Shown: positions 40,022 through 43,904, counted from the first letter of the stretch. The stretch is DNA of 64,000 bases from an uncultured Bacteroidota bacterium (GCA_913060705.1 CAJXTX010000002.1:1-64000); one strand, 5' to 3'. A program made the numbers and translations. Notes: generated by a model from the letters alone, not told the origin.

Positions 40022-40291
40022 ATGAACAGTATTAAAAATTTGAAGCGCCTAGAGCGCCTTCATGGACTCATTGTGTCAGAGTGTACAGGGTCTCCGTATG
40101 AGCTCTCTCAACGATTAGGAATCAGTGAACGACTCGTGTACCATTTGGTAGAACAATTAAAAGATTTTGACGCTAAAATCTCTTACGATCGTTCTAGAAG
40201 AACTTACTGCTATGACGACAACTTTGATTTAGAGGTTGATGTTTCAATTAAAGTATTCAGCAATAATCAATACACCGAGGTCTTTCATTAG
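40022..40291 (+). CDS. small HTH-domain protein (putative regulator of peptide locus)
   Basis: 89 aa; SPYELSQRLGISERLVYHLVEQLKDFDAKISYDRSRRTYCY looks like an HTH_11-type winged helix. Confidence 0.75.
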   Translation: MNSIKNLKRLERLHGLIVSECTGSPYELSQRLGISERLVYHLVEQLKDFDAKISYDRSRRTYCYDDNFDLEVDVSIKVFSNNQYTEVFH

Positions 40292-40343
40292 CTGCAAGGG
40301 TTTTGCGGACAACTCATTTAGGTTTGTCCTCAAATCAATTCTT

Positions 40344-40484
40344 ATGACAGTAAAATCAACACCGCAACTTCAGATTACCCCTCTAGAGCGAAGATTCGAG
40401 ATGGGTTGGTTCAAGAGTGGAGAAATCGGAGCGACTGTAGAGTCCGATGGAGAGTTTAGGGTTACAGGAAAATTGAGATTCTGA
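40344..40484 (+). CDS. 46-aa peptide of unknown function
   Basis: MTVKSTPQLQITPLERRFEMGWFKSGEIGATVESDGEFRVTGKLRF; TGATG stop/start overlap with the next gene; the tracked 82-aa ORF start lies inside the HTH gene and is less likely. Confidence 0.55.
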   Translation: MTVKSTPQLQITPLERRFEMGWFKSGEIGATVESDGEFRVTGKLRF

Positions 40485-41302
40485 TGAGCGCTCCGATGAA
40501 AGCCCTCCTTCTTATAGGAGGGCTTAGTTTTTATGGAATAGCGTCCTCTCAGCAATCCAATACGATTGAACTTGAAGGAGTGGAGCTCAAAGTTTTTGAC
40601 CTGTCTGCCGCATTTGAGGCAAGCATAAGAGCAAGGGATCAATGGTTTGAAGCGCAAAGTCTTTTTCATTACAACTACTTTCAAGAGACTACTTACGTGC
40701 AGCACAACTCTTCTCTGGTTAGAGAGATTTCATTGGATTATGCAGGACTTATCTCAGGTCGGGGAGTCTCGGCTATTAGATGGCAGGCTTACCCTATAGG
40801 AAAGGATGAATGCCTTTCTGTCAATTTACCTTATCCTGACTTGGCCTTTTTAAATCAGACGCTTCACCTCGAGTTCTATCAACATCTTTTTAATGAATTT
40901 TTAGAGCGCTTGGTGATCACGCAAGAAGAGGATGAACACCTTACAAGAATAGAGGTGCGTTCAAAATTTTTAGGCGCTATTGATCGCCTGTTTGCAGTGC
41001 TCCTAGTCGATACTCAAAGTTTGCACATTGAAAGTTTACAACTCAGTTTGCTCATCGATCCACTTTACGAGCCTCATAAACAGAAATGGAAGACGCAATC
41101 CTTGACTATTGAGTTGGACTTTGAGGACGGTATTTCAACGGCGTATAGTGCTCATACGAGTTTACTTTCTAGAGACCGCCGATTTAAGGAGCCGTTAAGA
41201 TTTACACAACGGCTAAAAAGATTGCCATTAGGGTTGAGGCCCAAGTCATCGCAATCAACAATTGACTTGAATAATGCCCTTAAACCTTTTTGCTCAGAAT
41301 GA
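40484..41302 (+). CDS. exported protein of unknown function
   Basis: 272 aa; signal-peptide-like MKALLLIGGLSFYGIASSQ; ATGA overlap with the next gene. Confidence 0.7.
   Translation: MSAPMKALLLIGGLSFYGIASSQQSNTIELEGVELKVFDLSAAFEASIRARDQWFEAQSLFHYNYFQETTYVQHNSSLVREISLDYAGLISGRGVSAIRWQAYPIGKDECLSVNLPYPDLAFLNQTLHLEFYQHLFNEFLERLVITQEEDEHLTRIEVRSKFLGAIDRLFAVLLVDTQSLHIESLQLSLLIDPLYEPHKQKWKTQSLTIELDFEDGISTAYSAHTSLLSRDRRFKEPLRFTQRLKRLPLGLRPKSSQSTIDLNNALKPFCSE
40500..40530 (+). terminator. terminator/attenuator-like hairpin inside signal-peptide codons
   Basis: AAGCCCTCCT-TCTTAT-AGGAGGGCTT (10-bp perfect inverted repeat) followed by AGTTTTT. Confidence 0.5.
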
Positions 41303-42048
41303 ATCAAACGCAATTAGATCAGTTGCTGATCGAAGATGTATCTCCCCATTTTTACCGACACTACGCGAGTCTTTTTCAGCATTATTTTAATCTGGAAAAT
41401 CAAGGAATATATAGAACATTAGACAAGGCTGGGCATTGCTTGTTTCAGCTTGTTATGCATATCGATCGTCAAGAAGATAATTTTGAAGATAACACGGCGT
41501 TGTGCCTGGATCTTCAGTTAGAATCCATCTTGCTTCTCAGTGAACTATTCAGTACCGACCATGCTTTTTGGCAAGATTTTAGGTACGCCCAAAGTCTATT
41601 TGGGAAACGTCAGCTATTAGAAAAACGATGCCAGTCGTATCCTTCTATAAAGAATTATCGCCATCTCGCTCAATCTAAAGCAGCTCTTGCATCTGTGGCG
41701 TTACACGCCTTGAAACATCTAGATGCTTCGACATCGGCACTTAAGGGGTTAGAACGCAGCCATGCCCTTTTCACGGAGGCTTTTCAACTGTATGACGATT
41801 GTTGTGATTTTAGAGAGGACTCCATCAACGGGCAATTCAATTGGGCAATCTATCGCTATCGCTTACACTACGAGCATGAGTTAGATCCCGCTCATTTTTT
41901 CTCTTCGGTATTATTCAATGAGCTTATGCTTCAGGTAATTGAAACAATAAAGAATGCACAGTCTCTTGTTCACGCTATGGGGGATTCACATTACTCAACA
42001 ATGCTTGAGGAGTTTAAAGCCTCGGTAAAACGTACACTAGCTAATTAA
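41299..42048 (+). CDS. putative class I isoprenoid-synthase-fold protein
   Basis: All-alpha 249 aa; HIDRQEDNFEDN and AFQLYDDCCDFREDSINGQFNWA resemble Asp-rich motifs of class I polyprenyl/squalene/phytoene synthases. Confidence 0.45.
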   Translation: MNQTQLDQLLIEDVSPHFYRHYASLFQHYFNLENQGIYRTLDKAGHCLFQLVMHIDRQEDNFEDNTALCLDLQLESILLLSELFSTDHAFWQDFRYAQSLFGKRQLLEKRCQSYPSIKNYRHLAQSKAALASVALHALKHLDASTSALKGLERSHALFTEAFQLYDDCCDFREDSINGQFNWAIYRYRLHYEHELDPAHFFSSVLFNELMLQVIETIKNAQSLVHAMGDSHYSTMLEEFKASVKRTLAN

Positions 42049-42054
42049 TCCTTT

Positions 42055-43158
42055 ATGCCGTATGATTTTGTAAATCACTTAACGCTGGCAAAGGTTGGCG
42101 ATGAATATCTTGTTTATTGTTCTAGTTCTAAGGTGGGTTATCGCATTTGCAATCACAGTTTTGAATTACTGACCAAGCTACGGGCGAAAGATCAAAATCT
42201 AAAAGAGGACGACTTTCAAAGGCTAGAAACATTGAAGGCTATCTTCGGCACAAAAGGAGCCACAAAAAAACGTAAGCGTTATGAGTTTATTCGGCAGCAT
42301 GGGCTTGTAGGCTGGCAAATTAACGGTTGTTATGTTCCACTGTCCTTGAGAATACTGTTTAAAAAGTGGAGGCCGCTACTCGTTTTTAGCCTCTTCGTGT
42401 TTCTTGCTGTTTTGACTTATTACCAGGGTACTGGGGGCGGGTCACTTTTTGTTCCTTTAAGTTCTGCGCTTAGTTGGTCTTTTTCGATTCTTGCCTTTAG
42501 TACAATCGTTCATGAATTAGGACACATTCAGGCCGCCGTCTATTATGGTGTAAAGGACTACGCTATAGGGGTGGGGTTTTATTATGGCTTTCCGGTATTG
42601 TTTACTGATGTGTCGTCGTCTTACCTATTGAAGCACTCTGAACGCATGGCCATTGCTCTTGCCGGCGTCTATTTTGAGCTACTGTACAGCACCCTATTGC
42701 TGTTGTTGTATTTAGTTGGAATTCATTCGCTTCTATTGCCGTTGGGAGTGTTGATATTTTTAAAGAGTCTCTATAACCTAAATCCGTTTTTTAAGACGGA
42801 TGGTTATTGGATACTTAGCGATTACCTGGGGGTTTATCATCTTAAGCAAAAAGCACTTGACACGATCATTAGCACACTAAAGCTTAAGACTAAAAAATCC
42901 CCTTTGCATTGGGGTTTATTACTTTATGGAGTGAGTCATTATGTATTTTATGTTTTATTTCTCTTTCTCGTGATTCATCAACTCACTCAGCGATGGGAGA
43001 GCCTAAAAGGACTCCAATGGTCAGGATTTGATTGGGAGGTACTTCAGACGATGGGACTTATGCTTTTGAGTGCAGTTGCACTCTATCAATTAATGAATGC
43101 AGCACTGCAAGCTTTTTACGGTATGCGCAACTACTTTTCGATTTCAAATCTTAAATAG
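42055..43158 (+). CDS. M50-family membrane metallopeptidase with possible PqqD-like N-terminal domain
   Basis: HELGH zinc motif in a TM segment and NPFFKTDGYW motif, as in peptide-maturation M50 proteins (YydH-like). Confidence 0.75.
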   Translation: MPYDFVNHLTLAKVGDEYLVYCSSSKVGYRICNHSFELLTKLRAKDQNLKEDDFQRLETLKAIFGTKGATKKRKRYEFIRQHGLVGWQINGCYVPLSLRILFKKWRPLLVFSLFVFLAVLTYYQGTGGGSLFVPLSSALSWSFSILAFSTIVHELGHIQAAVYYGVKDYAIGVGFYYGFPVLFTDVSSSYLLKHSERMAIALAGVYFELLYSTLLLLLYLVGIHSLLLPLGVLIFLKSLYNLNPFFKTDGYWILSDYLGVYHLKQKALDTIISTLKLKTKKSPLHWGLLLYGVSHYVFYVLFLFLVIHQLTQRWESLKGLQWSGFDWEVLQTMGLMLLSAVALYQLMNAALQAFYGMRNYFSISNLK

Positions 43159-43164
43159 AGAACA

Positions 43165-43308
43165 ATGCAAGTACTTGAATTAAATCACAAAGAAGTTCAA
43201 ACTTCTAGGGCAGGCTTTTTACCCTTCTTAGTTGTTTTGGCAGTCGATGCCGTTTTATTAGGTTTCATGGGAGGCTACATTTACGAATCCTATACGAGTG
43301 ATCATTAA
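43165..43308 (+). CDS. candidate precursor peptide with double-glycine-type leader
   Basis: MQVLELNHKEVQTSRAG|FLPFLVVLAVDAVLLGFMGGYIYESYTSDH; L-12/N-11/E-8/V-7/A-2/G-1 matches C39-processed leader spacing; 6 nt after the M50 gene; absent from the ORF track because it is short. Confidence 0.65.
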   Translation: MQVLELNHKEVQTSRAGFLPFLVVLAVDAVLLGFMGGYIYESYTSDH

Positions 43309-43424
43309 TGATGATTTTAAGGGCACTAGGTAAGCGATCGTGGGAGGCGGGGCTTTTAGAGTTATTCGCGAAATCATTTGTAGAAGGGCAAAATTATTAC
43401 CACAGAAATTGTAGTCATGAATAG
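43308..43424 (+). CDS. candidate small peptide (38 aa)
   Basis: MMILRALGKRSWEAGLLELFAKSFVEGQNYYHRNCSHE; TAATG coupling to the preceding ORF. Confidence 0.4.
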   Translation: MMILRALGKRSWEAGLLELFAKSFVEGQNYYHRNCSHE

Positions 43425-43503
43425 AGATTTAAAAGTAAGTATTGCTTTTTTGGCTTTGTTTGTGATTGCCTTTTGTCTTGGTGTATGGATGCATCCAAAT
43501 TGA
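43417..43503 (+). CDS. candidate single-TM micropeptide (28 aa)
   Basis: MNRDLKVSIAFLALFVIAFCLGVWMHPN; overlaps neighbouring small ORF and C39 gene. Confidence 0.45.
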   Translation: MNRDLKVSIAFLALFVIAFCLGVWMHPN

Positions 43504-43904
43504 GTTATGAAGTGGTTAGGCAAAAGGGGCTGTTCGATTGTGGAGCAGCCTGCCTTACCGCCTTGTTGCGCTATCACGGGCTTTCTATTTATTCAAAGCA
43601 ACTAAACCTGTATTCCAAGGGCTTCGGAGTTACGCTCTACGAGCTACTTCAAGGAGCGCAACGATTTGGATTTAAGGGAAGTGTATACCAGGCTTCGGAT
43701 TTGAAATCACTGTTGTTTCCGTGCATTGTACCCATGCGCTTTTTAGGATTTAGGCATTACTGGTTGGTCTATGAGTCAAGGGGAGAAACTCTTCTAGTGA
43801 TGGATCCGGCACTTGGAAAAATAGCCGTTGTTCGAAAGAAAATGTTTGTTGCTTTGTGGTCAGGAATCTTCATGATTGTCAGACAGGAGGAGGCCCACGC
43901 ATGA
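43485..43904 (+). CDS. stand-alone C39-family (bacteriocin-processing) peptidase
   Basis: QKGLFDCGAACLTALLRYHG, downstream His (FRHYWLVY) and Asp (DPALGK): complete Q/C/H/D set; no fused ABC domain. Confidence 0.85.
   Translation: MDASKLSYEVVRQKGLFDCGAACLTALLRYHGLSIYSKQLNLYSKGFGVTLYELLQGAQRFGFKGSVYQASDLKSLLFPCIVPMRFLGFRHYWLVYESRGETLLVMDPALGKIAVVRKKMFVALWSGIFMIVRQEEAHA

What the first reader, a model, noticed from the sequence alone, without database searches (positions are those of the whole stretch)
40022..43904. Candidate undescribed peptide biosynthesis/processing operon (HTH, small peptides, isoprenoid-synthase-like protein, M50 protease, C39 protease)
Seen directly: eight consecutive same-strand ORFs from 40344 to 43904 are joined by stop/start overlaps or 6-nt gaps (TGATG at 40482, ATGA at 41299, 6 nt, 6 nt, TAATG at 43306, 8-nt overlap, 19-nt overlap), preceded by a small HTH gene. 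Established: C39 peptidases cleave double-glycine leaders, and M50 HELGH proteins with an NPFF-KTDGYW motif occur in peptide maturation loci such as yydFGHIJ. Inference: this is a bacteriocin/RiPP-like system with two dedicated proteases and a possible prenyl-transferase-fold enzyme. It has no radical SAM, LanM, YcaO or fused peptidase-ABC gene, so it does not match a class I know.
Basis: partly seen in the sequence, partly recalled or inferred. Interest (0 to 1): 0.88.

Follow-up and report, generated by a model that had tools for sequence, protein, structure and literature searches.

The report
Prenylated-peptide operon with two peptidases
An accessory operon of a flavobacterium most likely makes a small secreted peptide that carries a terpene-like tail on one tryptophan, together with a pair of bacteriocin-like peptides and two peptidases that trim them; prenylated peptides of this kind are known, but I found no description of this trimmed-down, combined version.

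Summary
In detail: eight tightly coupled genes (40344-43904) follow a small HTH gene, and the set recurs in sister genomes and in another genus.

It holds two peptide modules. Module 1 is a 46-aa precursor, a secreted protein, an isoprenoid-synthase-fold enzyme and an M50 peptidase. The last two pair up across Bacteroidota next to small peptides with the leader motif FxVEELExRxE, mostly followed at the third or fourth residue by Trp. The enzyme keeps the catalytic aspartates and forms a clade apart from housekeeping prenyl synthases. Most likely it prenylates Trp22 of the 46-mer, as ComQ, PalQ and the P domain of ChrPC do. Relatives carry a fused squalene-hopene-cyclase-like domain; it was not found in the window's enzyme or genome. 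Module 2 is a pair of GG-type peptides (class IIb-like in relatives), a short membrane peptide and a stand-alone C39 peptidase.

The operon sits between two clusters that are adjacent in most sampled Flavobacteriaceae; at least two sister genomes show block-deletion scars. Verdict: new variant of a known kind. Chemistry and function are untested.

The parts
40022..40291 (+). HTH: 89-aa helix-turn-helix regulator; family marks peptide-secretion loci in Flavobacteriaceae
   Evidence: Matches in 54 of 399 family genomes; about half of 42 examined loci carry GG peptides with C39-ABC and HlyD beside it
40344..40484 (+). P46: 46-aa RiPP precursor, leader motif ITPLERRFE then M-G-Trp22 and a conserved core
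   Evidence: Motif LExRxE plus Trp shared with small ORFs beside the same enzyme/peptidase pair across Bacteroidota; dN/dS 0.13
40500..40525 (+). Terminator-like hairpin (10-bp stem, then a T-rich run) inside the signal-peptide codons of the next gene; probable attenuator that keeps precursor in excess of enzymes
   Evidence: same hairpin in L006 and L007, shorter-looped version in L052 and L053; other hairpins right after the precursor in L054, L011, L093, L095, L097
40484..41302 (+). D272: secreted protein with signal-peptide-like N-terminus, probably beta-rich; occupies the place of CarboxypepD_reg-domain proteins in related loci
   Evidence: No family hit; a relative in the same place has CarbopepD_reg_2; homology to them weak; structure model uninformative
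41299..42048 (+). ISO: isoprenoid-synthase-fold enzyme, proposed Trp prenyltransferase (FARM D56xxxD60; SARM Q163xxDDxxDxxxD174); no cyclase domain
42055..43158 (+). M50: membrane metallopeptidase (H153 E154 xx H157, NPFFKTDGYW) with an N-terminal PqqD/RRE-like region (weak)
43165..43308 (+). P47: GG-type peptide with AG at the presumed cleavage site; canonical GG in sister genomes
   Evidence: relatives hit TIGR03949 class IIb, above cut-off in L083; dN/dS 0.02
43308..43424 (+). P38: partner peptide without a leader in this genus; conserved end GQxxYHRNCxH
   Evidence: relatives in L054 and L058 carry GG leaders
43417..43503 (+). P28: 28-aa single-span membrane peptide, possible immunity peptide (weakest member)
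43485..43904 (+). C39: stand-alone cysteine peptidase without ABC domain; Q, C, H and D of the family visible in the sequence
   Evidence: E 3.9e-20; only C39 found in the genome
43986..49723 (+). Neighbouring MacB-type ABC ATPase, two permeases, HlyD-type adaptor, TolC-like protein: candidate exporter, but ancestral at this place

Best explanation
One operon under a small HTH regulator makes two kinds of secreted peptide. Module 1: P46 is a RiPP precursor. Its leader (ITPLERRFE) is bound, perhaps through the PqqD/RRE-like N-terminus of the M50 protein. ISO, a class I isoprenoid-synthase-fold enzyme that resembles ComQ and the P domain of ChrPC, transfers a C10-C20 prenyl group to Trp22. Having no cyclase domain, it leaves a linear or indole-cyclised prenyl group rather than a polycyclic one. 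The M50 peptidase then removes the leader at the membrane. Module 2: C39 cleaves the leader of P47, which works with P38 as a two-peptide unit, with P28 as possible immunity. Export is probably through the adjacent MacB-HlyD-TolC complex, since no peptidase-exporter was found in the genome. Shown here: gene content, co-occurrence, conserved motifs, Trp position, absence of the cyclase domain, constraint on the peptides. Inferred: every reaction, the leader cut, export, and the biological role.
For: ISO and M50 lie together in every relative with enough flank. A small peptide with LExRxE lies beside them each time; 19 of 20 have Trp in the core, 16 within six residues of the motif, none in the leader (chance about 3e-7 on a rough count of 12 lineages). 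D56, D60, Q163, D166, D167, D170, D174 invariant in 14 sequences. Clade apart from the two housekeeping synthases per genome, 100/100. Model resembles polyprenyl synthases, Ord1 at rank 14. C-halves of relatives match squalene-hopene cyclase and MstE, as described for prenyltransferase-cyclase fusions (PMC13290415). P47 relatives reach the class IIb cut-off. Hairpin after the precursor.
Against: No ChrPC sequence was at hand, so direct membership is untested. Gln before the SARM is also present in housekeeping synthases, so it does not discriminate. Structure model is modest (pLDDT 65, residues 1-72 unreliable; best Foldseek E 0.011, TM below 0.4). L012, L013 and L096 precursors lack Trp near the motif. 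PqqD/RRE evidence is weak. Mac cluster adjacency is ancestral, so it is no evidence of an export role. P47 has AG, not GG.
Confidence: 0.62

Rival explanations
1. ISO makes a free small terpenoid or longer prenyl diphosphate, and P46 is a small regulatory or partner protein rather than a substrate.
For: The second aspartate-rich motif and its Gln are kept as in true synthases; P46 core is strongly conserved between genera, unusual for a natural product.
Against: FARM is DxxxD, not DDxxD. Precursor copies multiply and cores vary beside the same enzyme in L010 (six copies), typical of substrates. An M50 peptidase accompanies it. The genome already has two housekeeping synthases.
Confidence: 0.17
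2. The two modules are functionally unrelated and merely share a promoter; module 2 is a remnant of a class IIb-type bacteriocin locus and is decaying. (Compatible with the best explanation for module 1.)
For: C39-ABC and HlyD of related loci are absent from the operon; P38 leader lost, P47 site AG; C39 frame seems interrupted in L007; module 1 occurs without module 2 in most Bacteroidota.
Against: P47 is among the most constrained genes (dN/dS 0.02) and C39 has 0.085; the same order from HTH to C39 occurs in L054, another genus at another place.
Confidence: 0.35
3. A peptide pheromone system (ComX-like) rather than an antimicrobial: the HTH protein answers to the mature peptide. (A rival on role, not on chemistry.)
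For: P46 core and both GG-type peptides are under purifying selection and nearly identical between species, unlike diversifying bacteriocins; a regulator heads the operon.
Against: No receptor kinase in the operon; the HTH family also heads ordinary GG-peptide loci; repeated loss of the block shows it is dispensable.
Confidence: 0.25
4. Daptide- or epipeptide-like system recognised by its M50 peptidase.
For: Best NCBIfam hits of the M50 are daptide_HExxH (5e-28) and YydH/LiaK (1e-14).
Against: Both far below cut-off (98 of 300; 55 of 225 bits); no decarboxylase, aminotransferase or radical SAM in the operon.
Confidence: 0.03

Closest known systems
ChrPC-type bifunctional prenyltransferase-cyclase RiPPs (Hubrich et al. 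2024, Chem 10:3224; not held, read through review PMC13290415)
   Same: Trans-IDS-like P domain that prenylates an internal Trp of a ribosomal peptide; relatives of the window's enzyme (L010, L054, L057, L092, L093) have a fused cyclase-like half
   Different: No cyclase domain in the window's enzyme, none found in the genome; here the enzyme sits with a second, GG-type peptide module and a stand-alone C39. I could not read whether the M50 and leader motif were already described there
ComQ/ComX (Bacillus; PMC5331326) and PalQ/PalX (Paenibacillus; PMC10853753)
   Same: Cyclase-less isoprenoid-synthase-fold enzyme, dedicated short precursor with Trp; first and fifth Asp of FARM kept
   Different: ComX has no obvious leader motif and its Trp is near the C-terminus, PalX's is C-terminal; here Trp is 3-4 residues after a conserved leader motif and an M50 peptidase is encoded; no ComP/ComA; ComQ lacks the SARM, which is intact here
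Class IIb two-peptide bacteriocins, lactobin A/cerein 7B family (TIGR03949)
   Same: Paired short peptides with GG leaders in relatives, C39 peptidase, small membrane peptide
   Different: Gram-negative host, no C39-ABC exporter found in the genome, no leader on P38 and AG site on P47 in the window, very low divergence
Daptide and epipeptide M50 peptidases (NF041824, NF058609)
   Same: HExxH ... NPFFKxDGYW intramembrane peptidase type
   Different: Scores well below cut-off; none of the modifying enzymes of those classes

Membership tests
Trans-IDS-like peptide Trp prenyltransferase (ComQ/PalQ/ChrPC P domain) | Isoprenoid-synthase superfamily | tested here: met
   Profile A5 hits solved trans-prenyltransferase 8hdl at 1.6e-7; Foldseek top ten all polyprenyl synthases, TM modest
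Trans-IDS-like peptide Trp prenyltransferase (ComQ/PalQ/ChrPC P domain) | First and fifth Asp of FARM; Gln before SARM | tested here: met
   D56, D60, Q163 invariant in 14 sequences; Gln is also in housekeeping synthases, so not discriminating
Trans-IDS-like peptide Trp prenyltransferase (ComQ/PalQ/ChrPC P domain) | Dedicated adjacent precursor with a conserved Trp | tested here: met
Trans-IDS-like peptide Trp prenyltransferase (ComQ/PalQ/ChrPC P domain) | Distinct from the cell's own prenyl diphosphate synthases | tested here: met
   Two others in the genome; separate clade 100/100
Trans-IDS-like peptide Trp prenyltransferase (ComQ/PalQ/ChrPC P domain) | Prenylates Trp of a peptide | not testable with these tools
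   Needs an enzyme assay
Trans-IDS-like peptide Trp prenyltransferase (ComQ/PalQ/ChrPC P domain) | Direct sequence similarity to ComQ, PalQ or ChrPC | not tested
   Their sequences were not at hand
ChrPC-type bifunctional prenyltransferase-cyclase | Fused terpene-cyclase domain | tested here: not met
   249-aa enzyme; no SQHop_cyclase_C in the genome, which is 89.85% complete
Class IIb two-peptide bacteriocin | Two adjacent GG-leader peptides | tested here: inconclusive
   Met in L054 and L058; in the window P47 has AG and P38 no leader
Class IIb two-peptide bacteriocin | C39-ABC exporter | tested here: not met
   Only one C39 found in the genome, stand-alone
Class IIb two-peptide bacteriocin | Match to TIGR03949 | tested here: inconclusive
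   No hit for the window's peptide; L083 relative above cut-off, L053 and L058 below
Daptides | daptide_HExxH above cut-off, and decarboxylase/aminotransferase genes | tested here: not met
   98 of 300 bits; no such genes in the operon
Epipeptides (YydFGHIJ) | YydH/LiaK above cut-off and radical SAM epimerase | tested here: not met
   55 of 225 bits; no radical SAM gene in the operon

The most novel reading that the evidence does not exclude
A conserved lipid-modified peptide signal (a Gram-negative counterpart of ComX) whose prenylated product acts together with the two GG-type peptides as one three-peptide system, made by a prenyltransferase that evolved from a prenyltransferase-cyclase fusion by losing its cyclase domain.
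Probability: 0.18. Interest if true: 0.82.

Novelty: new variant of a known kind. Interest (0 to 1): 0.62.

Why it matters
Few peptide tryptophan prenyltransferases are known. This work ties a Bacteroidota-wide set of ISO-type enzymes to a recognisable leader motif (FxVEELExRxE, Trp 3-4 residues on), an adjacent M50 peptidase and often a terminator right after the precursor, so precursors and the likely leader peptidase can be found by eye. The protease that matures ComX is unknown (PMC10853753), so a dedicated M50 beside the enzyme is testable. The cyclase-less window enzyme among fused relatives offers a natural comparison of prenylation with prenylation plus cyclisation. The low divergence of three peptides, with loss of the whole block in sister genomes, makes the question signal or antimicrobial directly testable.

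Tried and rejected
Daptide and epipeptide membership (scores below cut-off, enzymes absent). MacB-HlyD-TolC cluster as a dedicated, co-inherited exporter: rejected as evidence, because most sampled Flavobacteriaceae have ABC/MacB genes directly after the cox/P73 genes without the operon. Structure of D272: model useless (pLDDT 37). First tree used wrong ORFs for some control synthases and a second script failed; repeated correctly, with the long-branch L013 left out. Profile search of the PDB with three close ISO sequences found nothing. RRE domain of M50: only weak hints. Sigma-70 promoter scan: no more than chance. The 2024 ChrPC paper is not held. Literature searches for this gene combination found no description of it in the held library, which lacks most subscription journals.

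Full report
Check of the observation. C39 is certain and M50 is clear from its motifs; the isoprenoid-synthase resemblance is weak for the single protein. The window lies in a 1.59-Mb assembly of 66 contigs, 89.85% complete; its relatives are labelled Flavobacteriaceae MAGs. The operon recurs in L006 (73% identity in M50), L007 (34%), L052 and L053, and L148, all at the same place between the cox/SCO/DUF420 genes and a MacB-type cluster. It also occurs in L054, another genus at another place, with the same order from HTH to C39. ISO is found in 6 of 11 genomes of the genus. Between the window and L006 the 46-, 47- and 38-mers and the enzymes evolve under purifying selection; the 28-mer is doubtful.

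Module 1. A search of 395 genomes of the phylum with ISO found eight with a match, the window's own included. Around these and the M50 relatives the neighbourhood is stable: a small peptide, usually a secreted protein (CarboxypepD_reg type where tested), ISO, and M50. The exceptions, L094 and L099, end before an M50 could be seen. Three loci (L092, L095, L097) also have a gene that looks like radical SAM/SPASM (by eye from the sequence). The small peptides share the motif FxVEELExRxE; in L010 there are six of them with different tails. Of 20 peptides, 19 have Trp after the motif, 16 within six residues, usually at residue 3 or 4, and none has Trp in the leader. P46 of the window carries the same: ITPLERRFE-M-G-W. 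Hence P46 is the likely precursor and Trp22 the likely site.

The enzyme. In 14 sequences D56, D60, Q163, D166, D167, D170 and D174 are invariant: the first and fifth Asp of the first aspartate-rich motif, and the second motif with its upstream Gln. The 14-sequence profile reaches solved prenyl synthases (8hdl at 1.6e-7). The AlphaFold model of the window protein (pLDDT 65, N-terminus unreliable) has polyprenyl synthases as its ten best PDB matches, with Ord1, a Trp prenyltransferase, at rank 14; the E-values are weak (best 0.011) and TM-scores below 0.4. The genome has two ordinary synthases, and the ISO family forms a separate clade from those of three genomes, support 100/100. Relatives of 570-670 aa have a longer C-terminal half; where tested it matches squalene-hopene cyclase, and in profile also MstE. 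The window enzyme lacks it, as do the other genus members, and no such domain was found in the genome. In the tree the cyclase-less genus members sit among fused enzymes, in an order with weak support, which suggests domain loss.

What it works like. ComQ prenylates Trp of ComX, PalQ the terminal Trp of PalX, and ChrPC an internal Trp with C10-C20 groups that its C domain then cyclises (PMC5331326, PMC10853753, PMC13290415). The founding ChrPC paper is not held, so I could not compare sequences or learn whether its clusters have an M50. The window's ISO therefore works most likely like a ChrPC P domain on its own. The M50 peptidase, of the type used in daptide and epipeptide maturation but below both cut-offs, is the best candidate to remove the leader. 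Its N-terminal region looks PqqD/RRE-like only weakly.

Regulation. A terminator-like hairpin follows the precursor directly at 40500-40525 and lies inside the signal-peptide codons of D272. It is kept in L006 and L007, with a shorter loop in L052 and L053. Different hairpins stand at the same point in L054, L011, L093, L095 and L097. Such read-through terminators are a common way to keep precursor in excess of enzymes (general knowledge). A promoter-like GATAGTTT box upstream of HTH is conserved in the genus.

Module 2. P47 is the relative of GG-leader peptides: MKRTLSIPEMKKVRGG-FLPF... in L053 and similar peptides beside C39-ABC and HlyD genes in L058, L082 and L083. The L083 relative passes the class IIb model TIGR03949 and its partner the bacteriocin signal model TIGR01847. 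P38 is the partner peptide, which has a GG leader in L054 and L058 but none in the window's genus. The window's P47 has AG at the site. C39 stands alone and is the only one found in the genome, so export must use something else. The adjacent MacB-HlyD-TolC genes are a candidate, but their position is ancestral.

History. In most of 28 other Flavobacteriaceae loci examined the P73 gene is followed directly by ABC/MacB genes, so the operon lies in a gap between two old clusters. Sister genome L146 (DUF420 95% identical) has the first codons of HTH joined near the last codons of C39; L147 has a longer HTH piece near a C39 piece; L149 keeps a C39-like remnant. The operon was therefore present in ancestors of these genomes and lost as a block at least twice, probably three times. 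L150 keeps HTH and a P46-type peptide before an unrelated gene and a contig end.

Verdict. The system is real, conserved and peptide-producing by all genomic signs. It is a new variant of a known kind (Trp-prenylated ribosomal peptides) combined with a class IIb-like pair. Chemistry, export and role remain inferred.

Noticed in passing
L092, L095 and L097 (oriented loci, first gene of the cluster): ISO/M50/precursor loci that also carry a gene that looks like a radical SAM/SPASM enzyme, suggesting doubly modified peptides.
   Followed up: no
L010:5319-6361: Six tandem precursor copies with one kind of leader and six different tails, an apparent peptide library served by one enzyme with prenyltransferase-like and cyclase-like halves.
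   Followed up: partly
L150:3937-6102: 721-aa protein on the minus strand, possibly of the DUF4157/eCIS-associated type (recalled, not tested), lies where the operon genes should follow HTH and a P46-type precursor.
   Followed up: no
window:39920-40021: Hairpin GGATTTTATAAATCC followed by a conserved GATAGTTT box upstream of HTH, resembling the Bacteroidota -7 element TAnnTTTG (from general knowledge).
   Followed up: partly
L065 and L073: HTH-headed loci with arrays of repeated, glycine-rich GG-leader peptides (LLGGLDGVL...) beside C39-ABC and HlyD.
   Followed up: no
L008:5962-8093 and L009:4064-6594: Related M50 peptidases stand next to a gene that looks like ATP-grasp (Chryseobacterium) and one that looks like radical SAM (Elusimicrobia), so this peptidase type probably serves several RiPP classes.
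   Followed up: no
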